This document shows positions 27,469-44,445 of a stretch of 64,000 bases of DNA, piece after piece. The translations under genes were made by a program, and so were the position numbers. The notes beneath the pieces were generated by a model. The model had not been told where the DNA came from. It saw nothing but the letters and a program-made list of their open reading frames with translations, and searched no databases. This stretch comes from Roseibium limicola (GTDB lineage Bacteria > Pseudomonadota > Alphaproteobacteria > Rhizobiales > Stappiaceae). Position 1 is the stretch's first letter; every line of letters starts with the position of its first letter. The stretch lies in NCBI RefSeq assembly GCF_017313085.1, contig NZ_JAFLNF010000002.1, positions 744,001 to 808,000 of the forward strand, in the 5' to 3' direction.

Positions 27469-27535
27469 ATTGCATATTGCGAACTGTCGATCTGGGGAGA
27501 TGGGCAGTTCTTCGGGGAGCATAAGGAAGTTTATT

Positions 27536-28279
27536 ATGGAGAACGCGCAGCTCATAACCCTATCGCGCCAGACCGCGTTAAGGAATCAGCTGACCGTGGT
27601 CGCCAACAACATGGCGAACCTCAATACGTCTGGTTACAAGGCCCAGCGCCTTAATTTCGAAGAGTACCTGATGCCCGTCGCCGAAGCGACGGAGTTTCCT
27701 ACTCCTGACGAAACCCTGTCCTACGTCCACGATTATGCCACGACCTTCAATTTCTCCGAAGGCGGCATTCGGACAACGGACAACCCATTCGACCTTGCGG
27801 TCGAGGGGGACGGTTTCTTTGCAGTGCAAATGGAAGACGGGACGGAAGCCTTTACTCGTAACGGCGCCTTTCATTTGGACGTTGGCGGCACACTGGTCAC
27901 AGCAACCGGACGTCCGGTGCTGACCGAAGGTGGTCCAATCTCCTTCACCACTGAAGACGGTCAGGTAGAGATTGCCCGGGATGGCACGATCAGCTCCGAA
28001 CTCGGAGCTCGAGGCCGCATCCGATTGGTCGATTTCGAAGACAAGCAGTCGCTCCTTCAGTTGGGAGAGAACCTCTACGTCGGCAATGAACCTCTTCCGA
28101 TCCAGCCGATCCGCGGCGTGGTTCAAGGCGCTCTGGAAGAAGCCAACGTAGATGGGGTCGTCGAAATGACCCGCCTGATCGAGATCACCCGCGCCTATGA
28201 GAGCGTGACCAAGATGCAGTCCGACATGGATGAATTGCGCAAGACCGCAATCCAGACCCTCGGCACCCTCCAAGCCTAA
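27536..28279 (+). CDS. flgF: Proximal rod protein FlgF
   Basis: 247 residues from the ATG at 27536 (MENAQLITLSRQTALRNQL), preceded by AAGGAAG. Rod signature LTVVANNMANLNTSGYKAQR; middle GGIRTTDNPFDLAVEGDGFFAVQ; C-terminal helix EMTRLIEITRAYESVTKMQ. It forms part of the rod with FlgB and FlgC. First gene of flgF-flgG-flgA-flgH behind a sigma-54-type promoter. Confidence 0.95.
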   Translation: MENAQLITLSRQTALRNQLTVVANNMANLNTSGYKAQRLNFEEYLMPVAEATEFPTPDETLSYVHDYATTFNFSEGGIRTTDNPFDLAVEGDGFFAVQMEDGTEAFTRNGAFHLDVGGTLVTATGRPVLTEGGPISFTTEDGQVEIARDGTISSELGARGRIRLVDFEDKQSLLQLGENLYVGNEPLPIQPIRGVVQGALEEANVDGVVEMTRLIEITRAYESVTKMQSDMDELRKTAIQTLGTLQA

Positions 28280-35241: not shown

Positions 35242-35955
35242 AAACAATACATGGCATTTGCGGCAGATGAGCTCTGCCGCAACTGGACCAGGAACTAAAG
35301 CGGCAAAATCACCCAGCAACACATTCTGCTGAAGTCTGTGCGCGCCAGCCATTTGCCTGAGCACCCTTCCCGCACGACCTTGCCAATCCCCTGAATTTGC
35401 CCGAGTGACTTTGGCTGGCCGCATGAAGCGATGCGCCGAAGCCAAGCTTCAAGCAGAATGCTTCTTGACCGCACGCCACCAGAGCCGTGCCCTCGGAGCA
35501 CCACGCCCAAGGCAAGCATCGCCTGATGCCCTGAGCTTCTGATTGACACTCCGCCAGGTAAGAAATTCTCCTTATCGGCACTGCAACGACCACAGCCAGC
35601 CTGACCACCCAACATTCTCAGAGCCCAAGAAGCCGCTTCCCCAGAGTTTTGCACCCCCTTCCCCAAGGGAGGATCCATGCCGAGCTCACCTGCGCGTTTA
35701 CCAATAACGCCGACCTCATGCCAAATTTCATTGGCAAAATTACCCTTGTCTAAATCACTAGAAACAAAGCACCCAGACCCCAACAGCTCCTTCGCAATAC
35801 CCCCCAGACTGCAATATGGTAAACAGTAAAAGAAGGCGAGTAAGACAAAATTTACTATGAGACTTAACCAATTACGTTTTCTAATATTTAATCTTAAGAA
35901 CGAGTAACAAATAAAATTAAGATTCAATACAAATTTTAACAGCAGAGTTCGGTTG
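35242..35955. other. Long gap between flaG and first flagellin gene
   Basis: About 710 bp. The first ~400 bp have mixed composition; the last ~170 bp are very AT-rich. A minus-strand frame stays open from 35295 to 35927 (TTG start, no RBS, Cys/Trp-rich, no recognisable family), which I do not accept as a gene. TTAACC occurs at 35864, as upstream of other flagellins. No stable terminator after flaG was noticed. Confidence 0.4.
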
Positions 35956-35997
35956 TCATTCAGGAAGAATGATTAGGGAAAACAGAAGGAACTCTGT
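35956..35997 (+). promoter_or_regulatory. Leader hairpin pair of flagellin 1 (AGGAA loops)
   Basis: Hairpin 1: TCATTC (35956-35961), loop AGGAA, GAATGA (35967-35972). Hairpin 2: ACAGA (35982-35986), loop AGGAAC, TCTGT (35993-35997). The second loop contains the Shine-Dalgarno AGGA, eight bases from the ATG. Candidate binding site for a translational regulator such as FlbT or CsrA. Confidence 0.6.
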
Positions 35998-35998
35998 G

Positions 35999-37147
35999 AT
36001 GGGTGGCATTACTCTTTCAAGCGCAGTGCGCAATAACTTGAACTCTCTCCAAGCAACCTCTCAGCTGATGAGCTCGGTTCAGGAGAAACTGTCTACGGGC
36101 AAGAAGGTCAACTCGGCCCTCGACAACCCGAACTCCTTCTTCACCGCAAAGGGCCTGGAAAATCGCGCAAGCGATCTGTCCACCCTGCTGGACGACATGG
36201 GGCAGTCGATCCAGACACTGAAAGCGGCGGACAAGGGCATTGAAGCCATTTCCGATCTGGTCGATTCCGCCAAGGCGAAAGCGAACCAGGCTCAACAGAC
36301 ATCCAGTCAGTCCGAGCGTGCGCAATATGCCAAGGAATACAATGAGCTTCTGACGCAGATTGAAGATCTGGCAAAGGACAGCGGCTACGGCGGCAAGAAC
36401 TTGCTTGGCGGCACCGGTAACGATCTGTCGGTGACCTTCAATGAGGACGGATCGTCCTCCCTGTCGATTTCGTCAGTCGATTACTCCGACACGACGTCTT
36501 CAACTGGGCTGAACCTGTCGGACTTGACGGAAGCAACTTCCGGCACCTCCACCATTGCCCTGAACACCACCGCAACGGGCAGCGCAGCCCTGACAGGTGG
36601 CAATCTGCTGACCGACGACGGTGACTTTGCTGCGGGTGACGTTCTCACCTTTACAGATGCCAACGGCACGGAAATCGGCACTCTGGAAGTCACCGATACG
36701 ACCACCGTGGACGACCTGGAGGCCGCGATCGATGCCATTGACGGCGCAAGCGCGACCCTGGCAGCTGGCACGCTGACGACGACATCAGACTTCAAGCTGA
36801 CCATCTCGTCTGACGGCGCCCTCGCCGACACGACAACCGATGGTACGGATTCGTCCTTTGCAACTGACAGCTCGATCGACTCGACCCTGAGCTCTCTGAA
36901 GAACGCCCAGGACACGCTTCGTGCCCAGGCCTCAACCTTCGGTACCAACCTCTCCATCGTCGAAAGTCGCCAGGACTTCACCAAGGCGATCATCAACACA
37001 TTGGAGGAAGGCGCCGGAAAACTGACCCTTGCGGACACCAACGAGGAAGGCGCAAACCTGCTGGCACTGCAGACTCAGCAGACTTTGGCCTCAACATCCC
37101 TGTCTCTTGCCGCTCAGGCAGATCAGAATGTTCTTCGCCTCTTCTAA
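35999..37147 (+). CDS. Flagellin 1
   Basis: 382 residues from the ATG at 35999 (MGGITLSSAVRNNLNSLQATSQ), with AAGGA eight bases upstream. The N-terminal D0/D1 domain (to ~165) contains EKLSTGKKVNSALDNPNSFFTAKGLENRASDL; the C-terminal D1/D0 ends LTLADTNEEGANLLALQTQQ...QNVLRLF. The exposed middle holds one Flagellin_IN-like module (AAGDVLTFTDANGTEIGTLEVTDTTTVDDLEAAID). Exported as filament subunit. First of five tandem flagellin genes; highly similar to flagellins 2 and 3. Its own leader hairpins and terminator make it a monocistronic unit. Confidence 0.96.
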   Translation: MGGITLSSAVRNNLNSLQATSQLMSSVQEKLSTGKKVNSALDNPNSFFTAKGLENRASDLSTLLDDMGQSIQTLKAADKGIEAISDLVDSAKAKANQAQQTSSQSERAQYAKEYNELLTQIEDLAKDSGYGGKNLLGGTGNDLSVTFNEDGSSSLSISSVDYSDTTSSTGLNLSDLTEATSGTSTIALNTTATGSAALTGGNLLTDDGDFAAGDVLTFTDANGTEIGTLEVTDTTTVDDLEAAIDAIDGASATLAAGTLTTTSDFKLTISSDGALADTTTDGTDSSFATDSSIDSTLSSLKNAQDTLRAQASTFGTNLSIVESRQDFTKAIINTLEEGAGKLTLADTNEEGANLLALQTQQTLASTSLSLAAQADQNVLRLF

Positions 37148-37173
37148 AATGACGCAATAGTAAAAACAAAGAG

Positions 37174-37202
37174 ATGGCGGAAAATACCCCGCCATTTCTT
37201 TG
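37174..37202 (+). terminator. Terminator of flagellin 1
   Basis: ATGGCGG (37174-37180) pairs with CCGCCAT (37189-37195) and is followed by TTCTTTGG. Confidence 0.75.
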
Positions 37203-37223
37203 GATGTTTTTAGATTAACTTAA

Positions 37224-37242
37224 GGTTAGATTGTTGCTAACC
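37224..37242 (+). promoter_or_regulatory. GGTTA-N9-TAACC inverted repeat upstream of flagellin 2
   Basis: TTAAGGTTA and CTAACCATGTTT flank nine bases. The same pair (N8) stands at the same distance before flagellin 3. It ends 98 bp before the ATG. Probable activator or CtrA-half-site element of the promoter. Confidence 0.45.
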
Positions 37243-37291
37243 ATGTTTATTAACAGCTGTTTACACTTGGAGATGCCATTTTCACCGTGCT

Positions 37292-37333
37292 GAACCCAGG
37301 AAGGGTTCTGTAACGCGTAATCCTAGAAAGGAT
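37292..37333 (+). promoter_or_regulatory. Leader hairpin pair of flagellin 2
   Basis: Hairpin 1: GAACCC (37292-37297), loop AGGAA, GGGTTC (37303-37308). Hairpin 2: ATCCT (37320-37324), loop AGAA, AGGAT (37329-37333). The 3' arm of hairpin 2 is the Shine-Dalgarno itself, so folding would hide it. Confidence 0.65.
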
Positions 37334-37339
37334 CAAAAA

Positions 37340-38503
37340 ATGGCTGATAGCATCAATCTCTCGAGCGCAGTGCGTTCGAACCTCAACGCCCTTCAGGCGA
37401 CCTCCAAGATGATGACCTCGGTTCAGGAGAAACTCTCCACCGGTAAGCAGGTCAACTCGGCGCTCGACAACCCGAACTCTTTCTTCACTGCAAAGGGCTT
37501 GGAAAATCGCGCGAACGATTTGTCCTCTCTGCTGGATGACATGGGTCAGTCTGTTCAGACCTTGAAGGCCGCCGACAAAGGTATCGAGGCCATCAGCGAC
37601 CTTGTCGATGCAGCCAAGGCAAAAGCCAACCAGGCTTCCCAGACATCCAGTCAGTCCGAACGCAGTCAGTATGCTTCAGAGTACAATGAACTCCTGACGC
37701 AGATCGAAGATCTGGCCAAGGACAGTGGATACAAGGGCAAGAACCTGCTCGGCGGTACCGGCAATGACTTGTCCGTGACCTTCAACGAAGATGGTTCGTC
37801 CTCACTTGCCATTTCCGCTGTCGACTTTACGGACACCACGTCTTCGACAGGCCTGAGCCTTTCTGACCTGACCGAAGCAACGTCCGGCACGTCCACGATC
37901 GCCCTGAACACTGCAGCAACCGGCAACGCCGCTCTTACCGGCGGCAACCTGTTGACCGATGATGCAGAATTCACGGCCGGGGATACTCTGACTTTCACCG
38001 ACTCCAATGGCACCGAAATCGGCTCCTTTGAAATCACCGACACGACAACCGTCGATGACCTGGAAGCTGCGATTGATGACATTGATGGTGCAAGCGCAGA
38101 TCTCTCTGCTGGCGTGCTGACCACGACGTCGGACTTTAAACTTTCGATCTCGTCTGACAACGCAGGCTTTAACAGCAACGCGGCCGTGACGACCGATGGA
38201 ACGGATTCCTCTTTCGCCACGGACTCTGCGATCGAAGACACCCTGAGCGATCTGAAGAAAGCCCAGGATACGCTTCGCTCGCAGGCCTCGACCTTCGGTA
38301 CCAACCTTTCAATCGTGCAAAGCCGTCAGGATTTCACGAACTCCATGATTAACACCCTGGAAGAAGGTGCCGGCAAGCTGACACTGGCAGACACCAACGA
38401 GGAAGGCGCCAACTTGCTGGCTCTTCAGACCCAGCAGTCTCTGGCCTCCACGTCCCTGTCACTGGCAGCCCAGGCCGACCAGAACGTCCTGCGTCTCTTC
38501 TAA
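37340..38503 (+). CDS. Flagellin 2
   Basis: 387 residues (MADSINLSSAVRSNLNALQATSKMM...). Conserved N- and C-terminal filament domains as in flagellin 1, with one Flagellin_IN-like module in the middle (TAGDTLTFTDSNGTEIGSFEITDTTTVDDL). A five-residue insertion near NAGFNSNAAVTTDG distinguishes it. The AGGA of the 3' stem of leader hairpin 2 is seven bases upstream of the ATG. Separately terminated, so its dose can be set independently. Confidence 0.96.
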   Translation: MADSINLSSAVRSNLNALQATSKMMTSVQEKLSTGKQVNSALDNPNSFFTAKGLENRANDLSSLLDDMGQSVQTLKAADKGIEAISDLVDAAKAKANQASQTSSQSERSQYASEYNELLTQIEDLAKDSGYKGKNLLGGTGNDLSVTFNEDGSSSLAISAVDFTDTTSSTGLSLSDLTEATSGTSTIALNTAATGNAALTGGNLLTDDAEFTAGDTLTFTDSNGTEIGSFEITDTTTVDDLEAAIDDIDGASADLSAGVLTTTSDFKLSISSDNAGFNSNAAVTTDGTDSSFATDSAIEDTLSDLKKAQDTLRSQASTFGTNLSIVQSRQDFTNSMINTLEEGAGKLTLADTNEEGANLLALQTQQSLASTSLSLAAQADQNVLRLF

Positions 38504-38529
38504 GAAGAAGACCGTGGAAAGTAAGAATG

Positions 38530-38558
38530 AGCGGCGGGCGAAAGTCCGCCGCTTTTAT
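38530..38558 (+). terminator. Terminator of flagellin 2
   Basis: AGCGGCGG (38530-38537) pairs with CCGCCGCT (38546-38553) and is followed by TTTATTT. Confidence 0.85.
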
Positions 38559-38580
38559 TTCATCTGAAAGGAAGCATTAA

Positions 38581-38598
38581 GGTTAACTTGCACTAACC
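38581..38598 (+). promoter_or_regulatory. GGTTA-N8-TAACC inverted repeat upstream of flagellin 3
   Basis: TTAAGGTTA and CTAACCATGTTT flank eight bases and end 97 bp before the ATG, matching the flagellin 2 element. Confidence 0.45.
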
Positions 38599-38647
38599 AT
38601 GTTTCTTCACAAAGCATTTTCCTGAACCAATCATTTCTAGGATGTCA

Positions 38648-38691
38648 GACCCAGGAAGGGTCGAAGTAAAGAGTAGTCCTAGAAAGGTACT
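38648..38691 (+). promoter_or_regulatory. Leader hairpin pair of flagellin 3
   Basis: Hairpin 1: GACCC (38648-38652), loop AGGAA, GGGTC (38658-38662). Hairpin 2: AGTCCT (38675-38680), loop AGAA, AGG-T-ACT (38685-38691, one bulged base) covering the Shine-Dalgarno. Confidence 0.65.
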
Positions 38692-38694
38692 AAA

Positions 38695-39843
38695 ATGGCC
38701 GATATTACTTTGTCCAGCGCTGTCCGCTCCAACCTGAACTCTCTTCAGGCGACATCACAGCTTATGAGCTCAGTGCAGGAAAAGCTGTCTACTGGCAGAA
38801 AAGTCAATTCTGCTCTCGATAACCCAAACTCTTTCTTCACTGCGAAGGGCTTGGAAAACCGTGCGAACGATTTGTCTTCCCTGCTGGATGACATGGGTCA
38901 GTCCGTTCAGACCTTGAAGGCCGCCGATAAAGGTATCGAGGCCATCAGCGACCTTGTCGATGCCGCCAAGGCGAAAGCCAACCAGGCTTCCCAGACTTCC
39001 AGTCAGTCCGAACGCTCCCAATATGCCAAGGAATACAACGAACTTCTGACGCAAATCGAGGATATCGCCAAGGACAGTGGCTACAAGGGAAAGAACCTTC
39101 TCGGCGGTAACGGAAACGACCTCTCCGTAACCTTTAACGAAGACGGCTCCTCCTCCCTATCGATCAGCGCCGTCGACTTTACCGACACGACGTCCTCCAC
39201 AGGCTTGAGCCTGTCGGACCTGACGGAAGCAACCTCCGGCACCTCGACAATTGCCCTGAACACCACCGCGACGGGCAGTGCAGCCCTGACCGGCGGCAAT
39301 CTGTTGACCGACGATGGTGACTTTGCTGCCGGAGACGTCCTCAGCTTCACCGACGCCAACGGTACGGAGATCAGCACCTTTGAAGTCACCGACACGACAA
39401 CGGTCGACGATCTGGAAGCCGCGATTGACGCCATTGACGGCGCAAGTGCGACCTTGGCTGCCGGCGTGCTGACTACAACATCTGACTTCAAGCTGACCAT
39501 CTCTTCTGATGGCGCCCTCGCCGATTCCACAACTGACGGCACGGATTCCTCCTTTGCCACCGACGCCAACATCGACAGCACTCTGTCCGCCCTTTCCAGC
39601 GCCCAGAACACGTTACGATCGCAGGCCTCCACGTTTGGTACGAACCTTTCCATCGTACAGAACCGCCAAGACTTCACGAATGATATCATCGATACACTGG
39701 AAGAAGGCGCCGGCAAGCTGACGCTGGCCGATACAAACGAGGAAGGCGCCAATCTCCTGGCGTTGCAGACCCAGCAGTCGCTGGCCTCCACCTCCCTGTC
39801 CCTTGCCGCTCAGGCAGATCAGAACGTGCTGCGTCTCTTCTAA
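38695..39843 (+). CDS. Flagellin 3
   Basis: 382 residues (MADITLSSAVRSNLNSLQATSQLM...). Near-identical to flagellin 1 in the central module (AAGDVLSFTDANGTEISTFEVTDTTTVDDL) and to flagellin 2 in parts of the N-terminal domain (SDLVDAAKAKANQASQTSSQSER), which suggests gene conversion or recent duplication. Ends QNVLRLF like the others. Own leader and terminator. Confidence 0.96.
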   Translation: MADITLSSAVRSNLNSLQATSQLMSSVQEKLSTGRKVNSALDNPNSFFTAKGLENRANDLSSLLDDMGQSVQTLKAADKGIEAISDLVDAAKAKANQASQTSSQSERSQYAKEYNELLTQIEDIAKDSGYKGKNLLGGNGNDLSVTFNEDGSSSLSISAVDFTDTTSSTGLSLSDLTEATSGTSTIALNTTATGSAALTGGNLLTDDGDFAAGDVLSFTDANGTEISTFEVTDTTTVDDLEAAIDAIDGASATLAAGVLTTTSDFKLTISSDGALADSTTDGTDSSFATDANIDSTLSALSSAQNTLRSQASTFGTNLSIVQNRQDFTNDIIDTLEEGAGKLTLADTNEEGANLLALQTQQSLASTSLSLAAQADQNVLRLF

Positions 39844-39886
39844 GTCAGGCGTAAAGCTTCATCGGCAACTCAAGTTGCCAACTGCG

Positions 39887-39917
39887 AACGGCGGGCCCAC
39901 GGGTCCGCCGTTTTTGT
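39887..39917 (+). terminator. Terminator of flagellin 3
   Basis: AACGGCGG (39887-39894) pairs with CCGCCGTT (39905-39912) and is followed by TTTGTTTG. Confidence 0.88.
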
Positions 39918-40050
39918 TTGTGCGCCAGTCAGCCGAGAGCTGCCTCACAACAAAAAACCGCGCCCTGCTTCCAGTATTAATCTGTCATTAACCCTATAAT
40001 GCGACTGATTAACTATCGATTAGGGTTAACAGAAGATGATCCTGATCAAC

Positions 40051-40091
40051 CTGCTCAGAAAGAGCAGTAGTGCATAGGACCCAGGAAAGGG
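40051..40091 (+). promoter_or_regulatory. Leader hairpins of flagellin 4
   Basis: Hairpin 1: CTGCTC (40051-40056), loop AGAAA, GAGCAG (40062-40067). Then a weak CCC (40080-40082), loop AGGAAA, GGG (40089-40091). The loop types are the same as in flagellins 1-3, in swapped order. Further upstream, TTAACC (39988) and GGTTAA (40024) form a spaced inverted repeat. Confidence 0.5.
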
Positions 40092-40100
40092 ACAATTACG

Positions 40101-41585
40101 ATGGGTGACAACATTACCCTCTCGGCTGCCGTTCGGCAGAACCTACTTACACTTCAGTCGACAGCCGACCTTATGTCTGGCGTCCAGAACAAGCTGGCAA
40201 CCGGTCTGAAGGTAAACTCAGCGCTCGACAATCCGAATTCCTTCTTTACGGCCTCCGGCCTGAATTCGCGCTCAAACGACCTCAGCAATCTTCTAGAAGA
40301 CATGGGCCAGTCGCTGCAGACCATCCGTGCTGCTGACGAAGGCATTCAGACGATTACCGATCTGGTTGAATCCGCCAAGGCAAAAGCCAATCAGGCGCTT
40401 CAGACCCAGAGCCAGTTTGAACGTGCGAAGTTCGCAGCCCAGTATAACAATCTGCTCGAGCAGATTGAGGATGTCGCCAAGGATTCTTCTTATAAGGGCA
40501 AAAACCTGCTTGCAGGTGATGGCAACGATCTGACGACGATCTTCAACGAGGACGCCACGTCCAAGCTGAAAATCAGCGCAATCGATTACACCAACAGCGC
40601 GCTCTCCACCGGGCTGAACCTGTCTGACCTTGTTGAGGGTCAGGGCGGCGCTACGTCCTTCCAGCTGGAAGGTGGCAAGACCACCTATACCCTCACCGAT
40701 GGCACATCGACGCTGAACACAAGTTCGCTTCTGACCGATTCAGCTGACATCATCTCTGGCGACGCGATTGAAGTGCGCAGCGCTGGCGGAACAGCACAGA
40801 GCAGCTTGACCGTCGATGGCACGACCACCGTTCAGGACATGATCGACTCCATCAACTCCACCCCCGGTGTCCGGGCAGAGTTTGATGAAGGCACCGGCGT
40901 TCTGACAGTCATTTCAAATGAAGACATGACACTGGTCGCGGACCAGACCGCCTCGGCGGTTCTGGCGACAGTCGCCGCGACAGCGTTCACCGCCCTGTCC
41001 ACGACACTGGTCGACTCCGGCTCATTCAAAGCTGGCGACACACTGACACTGACAGACGGCAACAATTTCGAGCTCGGTTCGCTGGAAATCGACGAAGACA
41101 CCACCGTCGATGATCTCACCAACTTTATCAGCGACTTCAATGGCGTTGATGCATCCTTCAATACCACGACTGGCAAGTTGGCCATTCAAAGTGAGACGGA
41201 TCTGGCGCTGACGAGCGACAACGCCAACTTCAACGCAGAAAATTTCACGGCTGATGCAGATGGTGTGACGATCGAGGCACTCAGCGACAGCGGCTTCGCC
41301 ATGGACAACGACATTAATCGTGTCGTCGACCGACTAAACAACGCCCTCTCCAACTTGAGATCGCAAGCGTCCGAGTTTGGCACCAACTTGTCGACCGTTG
41401 AGATCCGGCAAGACTACACCAAGTCGCTGATCAACACGCTTCAGGAAGGTGCCGGCAAGCTGACCCTGGCCGATACCAACGAGGAAGGTGCAAACTTGCT
41501 GGCCTTGCAGACACGCCAGCAGCTCGCGTCAACATCCCTGTCCTTCGCCTCTCAGGCTGATCAGACAGTTCTGTCGCTCTTCTAA
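40101..41585 (+). CDS. Flagellin 4 (long form, two central modules)
   Basis: 494 residues (MGDNITLSAAVRQNLLTLQSTADLM...). Filament-core ends are conserved (KLATGLKVNSALDNPNSFFTASGLNSRSNDLSN; ...NEEGANLLALQTRQ...QTVLSLF). The variable middle is ~110 residues longer than in flagellins 1-3 and contains two related Flagellin_IN-like modules: ISGDAIEVRSAGGTAQSSLTVDGTTTVQDM and KAGDTLTLTDGNNFELGSLEIDEDTTVDDL. This gives a thicker surface-exposed domain. RBS is the AGGAAAGGGA upstream. Confidence 0.95.
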   Translation: MGDNITLSAAVRQNLLTLQSTADLMSGVQNKLATGLKVNSALDNPNSFFTASGLNSRSNDLSNLLEDMGQSLQTIRAADEGIQTITDLVESAKAKANQALQTQSQFERAKFAAQYNNLLEQIEDVAKDSSYKGKNLLAGDGNDLTTIFNEDATSKLKISAIDYTNSALSTGLNLSDLVEGQGGATSFQLEGGKTTYTLTDGTSTLNTSSLLTDSADIISGDAIEVRSAGGTAQSSLTVDGTTTVQDMIDSINSTPGVRAEFDEGTGVLTVISNEDMTLVADQTASAVLATVAATAFTALSTTLVDSGSFKAGDTLTLTDGNNFELGSLEIDEDTTVDDLTNFISDFNGVDASFNTTTGKLAIQSETDLALTSDNANFNAENFTADADGVTIEALSDSGFAMDNDINRVVDRLNNALSNLRSQASEFGTNLSTVEIRQDYTKSLINTLQEGAGKLTLADTNEEGANLLALQTRQQLASTSLSFASQADQTVLSLF

Positions 41586-41611
41586 AAAAACGACTCCCTT
41601 TCCAAACCTCG

Positions 41612-41640
41612 GGGCGGCCACAATCGTGTGCCGCCCTTTT
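41612..41640 (+). terminator. Terminator of flagellin 4
   Basis: GGGCGG (41612-41617) pairs with CCGCCC (41631-41636), an inner CACA/TGTG extends the stem, and TTTT follows. Confidence 0.85.
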
Positions 41641-42101
41641 CTTGTCGTCCTTTTCTCATCCACGAAACCTCTGGCCAAGCGGCACGAGCGAGCAGTGCTT
41701 GACGGGAGATTTGACGCCAAAGTTCCATGCTAAGCAGAAGTAACAAGTGTGGCAGTCGCAAGGCTGCGCATAGAGCTTCTGCGCGCAGGAACGTTCTGCA
41801 GGCTTTTCACTGTGATAAAAAGGAATCAGTTCGCGCCTTTCTGGTCACGCCAGTCGTAATCCTGGTTCAGAAATCTGAGATCGTTTACCTTTCAGACGTT
41901 TCCCTAAGGTCAAATTGAAAGAAATTTCCCTTTAAAAGTCGGCTACTTGGCAAAAATCTCTGAGTAACCGCGCTCAGAAAACCATTAACCCCTGACAAGC
42001 CTGTTTACTTTTCATTTACACTCTCCGCACTGTTAGGCGAAAGGCGCCTGACGCGTCGAACAAGCCGCCTGAAGCGGCCGACCAGAAATGCGGTGAGCCC
42101 C
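41641..42101. other. Gap between flagellins 4 and 5
   Basis: About 460 bp without a convincing gene. TTAACC at 41985 lies 112 bp before flagellin 5. A GCCGC/GCGGC hairpin with CTGAA loop stands at about 42063-42077; it does not share the AGGAA loop of the other flagellin leaders. Confidence 0.45.
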
Positions 42102-43604
42102 ATGAGCGATATTGTTCTTACAAGTGCCGTTCGGGACAACTTGCTCTCGCTGAAGAACACAGCGAAGTTGCAGTCCACGACCCAGAATCGCCTCGCGACT
42201 GGCCTGAAGGTCAATTCGGCCCTCGATAATCCGAATTCATTCTTCACGGCCGCCGGCCTGAACGACCGAGCCAGTGATCTGTCCAATCTCCTGGACAACA
42301 TGGGCCAGGCTGTCCAGACAATTCGAGCTGCCGATGACGGCCTCACCGCGATCACCAAACTGGTTGAATCGGCCAAGGCCCTTGCCAATCAGGCGCTTCA
42401 GAGTTCCAGCGAATATCAGCGTAAGATCAAGACCGAGCAGTACAACGATATTCTGCAACAGATCGAAGAACTTGCCCGCGACTCCGACTACAAGGGCAAA
42501 AACCTTCTGGCAGGCGCCGGCAACGAGCTCGAAGTAATTTTCAATGAGGACAGCACGTCCAACCTGACAATCAATCCTGTCGATTACACCGACACGACCC
42601 TTTCGACAGGCCTGTCGCTTTCGGATCTGGCAACAGGCGCAGGCGCCACAGCCTCCTTCACCGTTGCCGCAGGAACAACCTCGATCGAATTGACAGGGCT
42701 CCAAGCCTCTTCCGATCTGACGGCACTGGGGAACTGGGCAGATGGCGACATCGTGACAGTCACCGATGGCACAACCCCGACGACATTCGTCGTTGGCACC
42801 GACATCACGACTGTTCAGGATTATGTCAATGCGCTCAACGATATGCGCGGCATCAAGGCGACCTTCGACGAAGATACGGACACCGTCTCCATCGTCTCCG
42901 GACTGGACCCTGCCGTTACATTGAGTATCTCAAAAGACAACTCAGGCGGCGGTGCAGCGACAGATGGCGGCGCGACGGCAACAGCGACTCCGACATCCCT
43001 GGCCACGACCCCGATGACTGCCAATGCCACACTGACCTCCTCCGGAGGCTTCTCGGCAGAAGACATTCTTTATATTACCGATGGCAACAACTTCGAAGCT
43101 GCGTCGCTGGAAATTGACGATGAAACAACTGTCAGCGATCTGGTCAGCCTGTTGAAGTCGGTGAAGGGCCTCGACGCCACATTCGCCGGTGGCAGCATCA
43201 GCATGATTGGCGAAGTCTCCTGGAACATCTCAAGCTCCGGCAATGACTTCAACATCGATCAGTTCGCGACGACCAGTGGAACCGTAGGCTTGTTGGCCAC
43301 AGACAGCGGCTTTGCCAATGACACCGACATCGAACGTGTCTTGCAGGCGATCAACAATGCCTTGGAAGAACTTCGGTCTGCGGCCGGCACGCTGGGAACC
43401 AGCTTGTCGACCGTACAGATCCGAACTGACTTTACGCAAGAACTGATCAATACTCTGGAAGTTGGTGCCGGCGAGCTCACGATCGCTGACATGAATGAGG
43501 AAGGGGCGAACATGCTGGCCCTTCAAACCCGCCAGCAGCTGTCATCCACAGCCCTCTCCCTCGCCAGCCAGGCGGAACAGAGCGTTCTTTCTCTCTTTGG
43601 GTAA
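42102..43604 (+). CDS. Flagellin 5 (long form, divergent)
   Basis: 500 residues from the ATG at 42102 (MSDIVLTSAVRDNLLSLKNTAKLQ); a GTG at 42093 is less likely. The core ends are conserved but more divergent (ELTIADMNEEGANMLALQTRQQLSSTALSLASQAEQSVLSLFG). The middle again has two Flagellin_IN-like modules (WADGDIVTVTDGTTPTTFVVGTDITTVQDY; SAEDILYITDGNNFEAASLEIDDETTVSDL). No strong terminator precedes flbT 90 bp downstream, so part of the flbT-flaF message may come from this promoter. Confidence 0.95.
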   Translation: MSDIVLTSAVRDNLLSLKNTAKLQSTTQNRLATGLKVNSALDNPNSFFTAAGLNDRASDLSNLLDNMGQAVQTIRAADDGLTAITKLVESAKALANQALQSSSEYQRKIKTEQYNDILQQIEELARDSDYKGKNLLAGAGNELEVIFNEDSTSNLTINPVDYTDTTLSTGLSLSDLATGAGATASFTVAAGTTSIELTGLQASSDLTALGNWADGDIVTVTDGTTPTTFVVGTDITTVQDYVNALNDMRGIKATFDEDTDTVSIVSGLDPAVTLSISKDNSGGGAATDGGATATATPTSLATTPMTANATLTSSGGFSAEDILYITDGNNFEAASLEIDDETTVSDLVSLLKSVKGLDATFAGGSISMIGEVSWNISSSGNDFNIDQFATTSGTVGLLATDSGFANDTDIERVLQAINNALEELRSAAGTLGTSLSTVQIRTDFTQELINTLEVGAGELTIADMNEEGANMLALQTRQQLSSTALSLASQAEQSVLSLFG

Positions 43605-43694
43605 GCTTGAGGGTTATATTGGTTAAATTACCAAGGTCCAGCGTTAACGTTTGCTCAATATTGCTGGTGGATACTTATATACGGAGGACTGAGC

Positions 43695-44183
43695 ATGGCC
43701 CTCAAAGTTGAATTGAAACCGGGCGAACGGATCATCATTGGCGACAGTGTGATCACCAATGACAACCAACGGACCCGATTGTTTATCGAAGGCCAGGCCC
43801 CAATCCTTCGGGAGAAAGATATCCTTACGCCAGCAACGGCAAATACTCCGGCAAAACGAGTCTACCTGGCTGTTCAGCTGATGTATTTGTCTACCGACGT
43901 TGATCGGATCAAAGAAAACTACTTCACGCTGGTAAATGATATTGTGAAGGCCGCCCCGAGTACGATCCCGTATGTGACGAAGGTCAGCAACGCGATCATC
44001 AGTGGCGCTTTTTACAAGGCTCTCAAAGAAGCACGAAAGCTCATTGAGTACGAGAGGACGCTGATCGGTCATGTACAAGCAGGCAGCGCAGGCTTACCAG
44101 AAGACGAGCCAAGTGGCGGTGTCGCCGAGGGAACTGGAAGCGACCCTTCTGATGAAGGCCGCAGCACGGCTCCAGCTGATTAA
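43695..44183 (+). CDS. flbT: Flagellin mRNA translational regulator FlbT
   Basis: 162 residues (MALKVELKPGERIIIGDSVITNDNQRTRLFIEG) with a strong RBS GGAGGA. The conserved FlbT core spans ~1-125 (RVYLAVQLMYLSTDVDRIKENYFTLVNDIVKAAPS). In Caulobacter FlbT binds the 5' leader of flagellin mRNA and promotes its decay until the hook is complete. Residues 126-162 are an acidic Gly/Ser/Pro-rich tail encoded in the same DNA as the start of flaF, in another frame. Cytosolic. Immediately downstream of the flagellin array. Confidence 0.95.
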   Translation: MALKVELKPGERIIIGDSVITNDNQRTRLFIEGQAPILREKDILTPATANTPAKRVYLAVQLMYLSTDVDRIKENYFTLVNDIVKAAPSTIPYVTKVSNAIISGAFYKALKEARKLIEYERTLIGHVQAGSAGLPEDEPSGGVAEGTGSDPSDEGRSTAPAD

Positions 44184-44445
44184 AGACGAGTGGGAAACCT
44201 CCTCCTTTGCGGAGCAGGATGAAGCCTTGTCCTATAATCGCAAACTCTGGACGATCCTCGTCACCTCGGCAACGAGCAAACAGAGCGAACTCCCCCAGGA
44301 CATCAAGGACAACCTCGCCTCGCTGGCGATGTTCGTCTTCAAACATACGATGTCGATTTTATCCGACCCCAAGCCGGAGAAATTGACCTCGCTGATCAGT
44401 ATCAATCGGAACATCGCCGAAGGGCTGCGCGTGCGCCCCGAATAG
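44071..44445 (+). CDS. flaF: Flagellin synthesis regulator FlaF
   Basis: 124 residues (MYKQAAQAYQKTSQVAVSPRELEATLLMKAAARL). This start is the family's usual N-terminus, which makes the 113-bp out-of-frame overlap with flbT genuine. Helical protein; core LIKDEWETSSFAEQDEALSYNRKLWTILVTSAT and DIKDNLASLAMFVFKHTMSIL. In Caulobacter FlaF is needed for flagellin translation and opposes FlbT. No RBS is strong because the start is inside flbT; translational coupling is likely. A terminator follows. Confidence 0.93.
   Translation: MYKQAAQAYQKTSQVAVSPRELEATLLMKAAARLQLIKDEWETSSFAEQDEALSYNRKLWTILVTSATSKQSELPQDIKDNLASLAMFVFKHTMSILSDPKPEKLTSLISINRNIAEGLRVRPE

What the first reader, a model, noticed from the sequence alone, without database searches (positions are those of the whole stretch)
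35956..40091. Covarying AGGAA-loop hairpins in flagellin mRNA leaders
Flagellin genes 1, 2 and 3 each have, 30-50 nt before the start codon, a perfect hairpin with the identical loop AGGAA but different paired stems: TCATTC/GAATGA, GAACCC/GGGTTC, GACCC/GGGTC. Changed stems with kept pairing and a fixed loop indicate selection on RNA structure. A second hairpin lies at the Shine-Dalgarno (loop AGGAAC in gene 1; AGAA loop with the SD in the 3' arm in genes 2 and 3). Gene 4 has CTGCTC/GAGCAG with AGAAA loop plus a weak CCC-AGGAAA-GGG. Gene 5 lacks the AGGAA loop. Known: FlbT binds a flagellin leader in Caulobacter, and CsrA binds GGA in hairpin loops. flbT lies 4-8 kb downstream. The inference is a translational switch on four of five flagellins.
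Basis: partly seen in the sequence, partly recalled or inferred. Interest (0 to 1): 0.8.

Follow-up and report, generated by a model that had tools for sequence, protein, structure and literature searches.

The report
Two-hairpin brake on flagellin mRNAs
Four of the five clustered flagellin genes in this bacterium start with the same pair of RNA hairpins, and across related bacteria the stem of the first changes in step while its loop stays nearly the same; they are likely the docking site through which the protein FlbT would hold back flagellin production until the flagellum base is built.

Summary
Flagellins F1-F4 carry an upstream hairpin H1 (loop AGGAA; AGAAA in F4) and a second hairpin H2 at the Shine-Dalgarno sequence (SD); F5, just before flbT-flaF, has neither. 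In leaders of 36 same-genus genomes plus the window, strict H1 is in 84 of 102 non-F5 and 0 of 36 F5 leaders. Over 80 distinct H1s, 96.5% of cells in six stem pairs pair, against 35-48% with partners slid. A covariance model finds the element before flagellins of other genera (34 of 36 hits); in the own genome it hits only F2-F4.

FlbT is the best candidate. Of 172 flagellin-bearing alphaproteobacterial genomes sampled, 93 have FlbT+FlaF without CsrA or FliW, 42 have CsrA+FliW without FlbT or FlaF, none has FlbT+FliW. Many CsrA-genome leaders show a similar layout (both hairpins in 13 of 40). I read this as a kept leader layout with an exchanged reader. FlbT binding, repression and any FlbT-CsrA homology are inferred or unproven. 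No Rfam family matches these leaders.

The parts
35942..35950 (+). F1 leader, 5' arm of an outer stem (GCAGAGTTC) that can pair with 35989-35997 (GAACTCTGT) around H1, an alternative to H2 that hides the SD
   Evidence: minimum-energy fold; with the printed letters, 14 of 17 F1-type leaders keep the 8-nt arm at this place with 8 of 8 pairs (one search scored 15, one of them, L063, at another place)
35955..35973 (+). H1 of F1, loop AGGAA 35962-35966
35982..35997 (+). H2 of F1, loop AGGAAC holding the SD
35999..37147 (+). flagellin F1
   Evidence: Flagellin_N and Flagellin_C
37292..37308 (+). H1 of F2, loop AGGAA 37298-37302
   Evidence: covariance model hit
37320..37333 (+). H2 of F2, SD in the 3' arm
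37340..38503 (+). flagellin F2
   Evidence: 86% (F1) and 89% (F3) identical to it
38648..38662 (+). H1 of F3, loop AGGAA 38653-38657
38675..38691 (+). H2 of F3, bulged, SD in the 3' arm
   Evidence: by eye; the minimum-energy fold prefers another pairing
38695..39843 (+). flagellin F3
40051..40067 (+). H1 of F4, loop AGAAA 40057-40061
40080..40091 (+). H2 of F4, CCC-AGGAAA-GGG
40101..41585 (+). flagellin F4
42102..43604 (+). flagellin F5, without H1 and H2; candidate FljJ-like sensor paralog (inference)
   Evidence: 0 of 36 F5 leaders have strict H1
43695..44183 (+). flbT, proposed reader
   Evidence: PF07378, E 8.1e-44
44071..44445 (+). flaF
   Evidence: PF07309, E 1.1e-32

Best explanation
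The four leaders each carry a two-hairpin RNA element that is conserved before flagellin genes in related bacteria and is likely a translational operator read by the neighbouring regulator FlbT. Shown: H1 and H2 are in the sequence, H1 stems covary, the commonest loops are AGGAA and AGGAC, H2 holds the SD in its 3' arm or loop (in F3 only as a bulged stem), the element marks flagellin leaders, F5 lacks it, and the genome has flbT and flaF but no csrA that the search could find. Inferred: FlbT, perhaps as a dimer touching both loops and with a flagellin partner (F5 is the candidate, by analogy with FljJ of Caulobacter), closes H2 or the F1 outer stem over the SD, so that flagellin is not made and the mRNA decays until the hook-basal body can export it. 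Inferred too: FlbT-FlaF took the place of CsrA-FliW in part of the Alphaproteobacteria while the leader layout was kept.
For: H1 covariation. Strict H1 in 84 of 102 non-F5 leaders and 0 of 36 F5 leaders. 34 of 36 covariance-model hits outside Roseibium lie within 40 nt before a flagellin start. Own genome: 3 hits at E<=1, all at F2-F4 (F3 and F4 were in the model). flbT and flaF follow F5. No CsrA and no FliW found in the genome. FlbT in 97 and CsrA in 50 of 172 flagellin-bearing genomes, both in 2, about 28 expected. FlbT-genome and CsrA-genome leaders have pentaloop hairpins well above shuffles, 'neither' leaders none of 16. Literature: FlbT binds flagellin 5' UTRs in Caulobacter and represses translation (PMC3930126, passages); FlbT-FljJ co-repression relieved by FljJ secretion (PMC7591256, passages).
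Against: No binding or expression data here. FlbT is proposed to activate flagellin production in Brucella (PMC4347634, passages; PMC8781033, passages). In the class-wide sample only 9 of 37 leaders of FlbT genomes match the H1 pattern, several with AAAAC or AAAAT loops, and the SD hairpin (5 of 37) does not exceed the largest shuffle value of 5. The number of pairs with double changes (6) is no higher than in shuffles (5.5). Folding prefers other pairings to H2 in F1 and F3. The exclusion statistic is not corrected for phylogeny.
Confidence: 0.68

Rival explanations
1. The hairpins act without a dedicated protein: H2 or the outer stem hides the SD and H1 insulates or stabilises the mRNA, giving a fixed or temperature-dependent translation rate.
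For: H2 and the F1 outer stem cover the SD on their own, and leaders fold better than shuffles.
Against: Pure pairing does not explain why one loop, AGGAA, dominates among hairpins found without asking for a loop, while the stem varies freely.
Confidence: 0.12
2. Another reader uses the loops: an unknown RNA-binding protein, a small RNA, or the ribosome itself (AGGA as standby SD).
For: AGGA resembles an SD; no direct FlbT contact is shown. 19 flagellin-bearing genomes have none of FlbT, FlaF, CsrA, FliW.
Against: AAAAC and AAAAT loops in other FlbT genomes do not look like an SD. Leaders of genomes without FlbT and CsrA show no H1 pattern (0 of 16), which ties the element to these two regulators.
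Confidence: 0.15
3. CsrA binds these leaders, as in Bacillus and Campylobacter flagellin mRNAs.
For: AGGA in hairpin loops, two hairpins, one at the SD; Campylobacter flaA has two stem-loops with A(U/A)GGA (PMC6692469, passages).
Against: No csrA found in the 99.84% complete genome with a search that finds it in E. coli, B. subtilis and T. maritima; H1 loops lack the AnGGA spacing base.
Confidence: 0.02
4. The likeness of the leaders is recent duplication of flagellin genes, not selection on RNA.
For: F1 and F3 are 86% and 89% identical to F2 in protein.
Against: Stems differ while pairing is kept: positions 3 to 6 of H1 show all four Watson-Crick pairs; model hits in Devosia, Stappia, Pelagibacterium, Parvibaculum, Tepidicaulis and others.
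Confidence: 0.02

Closest known systems
FlbT-controlled flagellin leaders of Caulobacter crescentus
   Same: Flagellin 5' leaders; flbT and flaF present; one flagellin paralog set apart (FljJ there, F5 here by inference). Caulobacteraceae-like leaders L285-L286 (name judged from recall of the protein start) carry two hairpins with AAAAT loops.
   Different: Loops AGGAA/AGGAC here, AAAAT there; an SD hairpin was not seen in L285-L286. The primary papers were not held, so the published Caulobacter structure could not be compared.
CsrA-FliW control of flagellin mRNA (hag of Bacillus subtilis, recalled; flaA of Campylobacter jejuni)
   Same: Two hairpins in the leader, one at or near the SD; repression until assembly (PMC6692469 and PMC4894983, passages).
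   Different: No csrA or fliW found here; H1 loop AGGAA lacks the AnGGA spacing; FlbT-FlaF present instead.
flg-Rhizobiales RNA (Rfam RF01736)
   Same: Structured RNA in flagellar loci of Rhizobiales.
   Different: No match at the flagellin leaders; its single weak match in the genome is at window 27480-27581, before an flgF-like ORF (29.7 bits, gathering score 55).

Membership tests
CsrA-regulated flagellin leader | csrA gene in the genome | tested here: not met
   PF02599: 0 matches, 23 candidates scored; controls ring in 3 of 14 known genomes
CsrA-regulated flagellin leader | AnGGA in hairpin loops | tested here: not met
   H1 loops are AGGAA (F1-F3) and AGAAA (F4), directly after the closing C; only H2 of F1 reads AAGGA. 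Consensus from PMC6692469 passages
CsrA-regulated flagellin leader | tandem hairpins, one at the SD | tested here: met
FlbT-controlled flagellin leader | flbT in the genome, leader before flagellin | tested here: met
FlbT-controlled flagellin leader | FlbT binds the leader and lowers translation or mRNA stability | not testable with these tools
   needs binding and expression experiments
FlbT-controlled flagellin leader | same RNA structure as in Caulobacter | tested here: inconclusive
   unnamed Caulobacteraceae-like leaders show AAAAT hairpins, not AGGAA
Rfam RF01736 flg-Rhizobiales | score at or above gathering at these leaders | tested here: not met
FlbT as a CsrA-family protein | Pfam PF02599 match | tested here: not met
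   window FlbT: only FlbT and a weak Sm_like match at E<=10; CsrA not among the 17 families matched by 30 FlbT members
FlbT as a CsrA-family protein | profile-profile similarity | tested here: inconclusive
   17 columns, probability 24-31%, local score 23.9 against shuffle maximum 23.6; with more sequences probability 6.5%, local 19.3 against 18.4, N-terminal global 13.0 against 13.2
FlbT as a CsrA-family protein | same fold | tested here: inconclusive
   models show five strands in the first 40 residues; Foldseek had no match at E<=0.001 and VIA-align saw only Foldseek's own list

The most novel reading that the evidence does not exclude
Probability: 0.3. Interest if true: 0.85.

Novelty: new variant of a known kind. 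Interest (0 to 1): 0.7.

Why it matters
FlbT has long been said to act on flagellin leaders, yet a 2015 review lists no binding motif for it and calls its mechanism unresolved (PMC4347634, passages). This gives a concrete candidate operator backed by covariation, a built-in negative control (F5), and single loop or stem changes with clear predictions. The near exclusion of FlbT-FlaF and CsrA-FliW within one bacterial class, with similar leader layouts in both groups, would be a visible case of a regulatory protein being replaced while the layout of its RNA target persists.

Tried and rejected
CsrA as reader in this genome: rejected. Rfam: nothing at gathering score in the window; at E<=10 in 35800-43700 two Xoo2-like matches that look like the terminators after F2 and F3, and one sR32-like match.

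One ancient exempt flagellin clade: not supported; the F5 clade (support 100/99) and a Parvibaculum/Tepidicaulis clade without H1 (100/97) lie apart in the tree. That tree holds rows with wrongly placed starts, so its 78 of 144 H1-minus rows overstate exemption; its H1 rule was 4 bp or more with loop ARRAN.

Rows dropped and choices made: loop positions are partly fixed by my own search rule (loops beginning AG[GA]A); only one search scanned for hairpins without a set loop. Of 102 non-F5 leaders 98 have a 5-nt H1 loop, reduced to 80 distinct stretches. Alignment A4 took 39 of 40 leaders chosen; one with a bulged H1 was left out, which favours pairing. A5 and model R1 took 32 of those 39 (six F1-type rows and one other left out). 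R1 was run on 66 of the 80 loci; the two of 36 hits not counted (L154, L158) end by eye 3 nt before a flagellin start that one search placed too far upstream. The leaders were taken from the top of a capped list, not at random: 37 from 22 FlbT genomes, 40 from 35 CsrA genomes, 16 from 13 genomes with neither (two of these carry FliW and may lack CsrA only by incompleteness). The loop pattern was chosen after seeing the loops. Some F5 starts are off by a few codons. An enclosing stem for F3 is not kept in most F2/F3-type leaders seen.
Full report
WHAT IS THERE. The window (strand +) holds five flagellin genes F1-F5, then flbT and flaF. The genus is probably Roseibium, judged from the names of the closest FlbT relatives. 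F1-F4 each have, just before the start codon, a hairpin H1 with loop AGGAA (AGAAA in F4) and a second hairpin H2 at the SD; F5 has neither. Folding energies are below dinucleotide shuffles for F1-F4 (z -3.63, -3.10, -3.04, -1.95) and not for F5 (-0.37).

IS IT SELECTED. Flagellin clusters of 36 same-genus genomes were fetched and 141 leaders extracted, window and one other-family locus (L070) included. A hairpin scan that was not told the loop found AGGAA the commonest loop. Strict H1 (5 bp or more, loop AGGA[AC] or AGAA[AC]) is in 84 of 102 non-F5 leaders, 0 of 36 F5 leaders and 1 of 3 L070 leaders. With loops required to begin AG[GA]A, 92 of 102 have an H1 stem of 4 or more perfect pairs and 94 of 102 an H2 stem of 3 or more. 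Over 80 distinct H1s, the six inner stem pairs form in 96.5% of cells against 35-48% with partners slid by 1-3, and pairs 3 to 6 use all four Watson-Crick types. On 39 aligned leaders 93.6% of cells pair, covariation 0.591 against 0.226 in shuffles (0 of 500 as high); changes on both sides occur at 5 of 6 H1 pairs and 1 of 3 H2 pairs; the mere number of such pairs (6) is not above shuffles (5.5). So covariation supports H1 strongly and H2 weakly.

HOW SPECIFIC. In loci L032-L068, 85 of 122 strict H1 motifs in 763,614 nt (both strands) lie within 80 nt before a flagellin start; the other 37 are scattered. Covariance model R1 gave 36 matches at E<=1 in 66 further loci (1,144,459 bases); 34 lie within 40 nt before a flagellin start, in Pannonibacter, Stappia, Devosia, Pelagibacterium, Parvibaculum, Tepidicaulis, Maritalea and others. 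In the own genome (4.5 Mb) R1 has exactly three matches at E<=1: F2, F3 and F4. F1-type leaders were not in the model and F1 is not found by it.

WHO READS IT. The genome shows no CsrA and no FliW. Over 289 alphaproteobacterial genomes FlbT is in 99, CsrA in 56, both in 2. Among 172 with a flagellin match: FlbT without CsrA 95, CsrA without FlbT 48, both 2, neither 27; Fisher p about 1e-20, not corrected for phylogeny. FlaF accompanies FlbT in 96 of 99 genomes, FliW accompanies CsrA in 43 of 56, FlbT with FliW in 0. Of the 172, 93 have FlbT+FlaF alone, 42 CsrA+FliW alone, 19 none of the four, and 18 other mixtures. PMC4894983 had suggested an analogy between the two pairs (passages).

SIMILAR LAYOUT UNDER BOTH MODULES. 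93 leaders were fetched from these genomes. Leaders of CsrA genomes often carry a C-G closed stem with loops AGGAA, AGGTA, AGGAT or AGGAC, and CCAAGTAGG or CCATGTAGG at the SD. With a pattern chosen after seeing this, H1-like hairpins are in 19 of 40 CsrA, 9 of 37 FlbT and 0 of 16 'neither' leaders (shuffle means 0.49, 0.27, 0.35); a CC-loop-GG at the SD in 18 of 40, 5 of 37 and 1 of 16 (means 1.49, 1.11, 0.24); both in 13, 3 and 0. Most sampled leaders of FlbT genomes outside this group do not match, and those that do often have AAAAC or AAAAT loops. The sample may contain genes that are not filament flagellins. Since H1 loops of CsrA genomes also lack the AnGGA spacing, CsrA as their reader is itself an inference.

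MECHANISM (inferred). [quoted passage not shown] of the flagellins only FljJ binds FlbT, and its secretion relieves repression (PMC7591256, passages). In Brucella FlbT is proposed to activate (PMC4347634, passages; PMC8781033, passages), which speaks against one uniform sign of control. F5, without H1 in all 36 F5 leaders, would fit a FljJ-like role; other genera also have flagellins without H1 that are not in the F5 clade. I take H1 as anchor site and H2 as the switch over the SD. F1-type leaders have a second way to hide the SD: an outer stem, kept with 8 of 8 pairs at the same place in 14 of 17.

FLBT AND CSRA AS PROTEINS. A similarity over 17 columns (around KPGE..VIN) beats 200 of 200 column shuffles locally, but has low probability and fades with more sequences; the global N-terminal score does not beat every shuffle. 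The first 40 residues of FlbT are predicted as five strands. No fold search supports CsrA. Homology is open.

PRINT STATUS. Searches pairing FlbT with flagellin, FlaF, CsrA, FljJ, fljK and stem-loop terms listed no paper whose title, abstract start or read passages describe this element. The two key primary papers (Anderson and Gober 2000; Ardissone et al. 2020, titles recalled or from reference lists) are not held, so a description there cannot be excluded.

Noticed in passing
window 27480-27581: Weak match to the flg-Rhizobiales RNA (RF01736, 29.7 bits, gathering 55), just before an ORF that reads like flgF.
   Followed up: partly
window 44071-44183: flbT and the flaF open frame overlap by 113 nt if flaF starts at its first ATG; the start was not verified.
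   Followed up: no
window 44071-44442: FlaF also matches the flagellin chaperone family FliS below cut-off (22.4 bits, E 1.6e-4).
   Followed up: no
own genome contig C12:143-556 (locus L349): A further flagellin-like gene of another type (MPVISTNTAANTAVRYL...) whose leader shows no H1.
   Followed up: partly
window 38496-38558 and 39847-39917: Terminator-like hairpins with T runs after F2 and F3 (weak Xoo2 matches), suggesting separate transcripts.
   Followed up: no
L068:5638-6334 (+): The hairpin CCTCCTCAGGATGAGGGG occurs four times at 231-233 nt spacing on the strand opposite the flagellins, apparently a repeat.
   Followed up: no
genomes G147, G268, G182, G260: Mixed modules: G147 and G268 have FlbT+FlaF+CsrA, G182 FlaF+CsrA+FliW, G260 FlaF+CsrA; possible intermediates.
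   Followed up: partly
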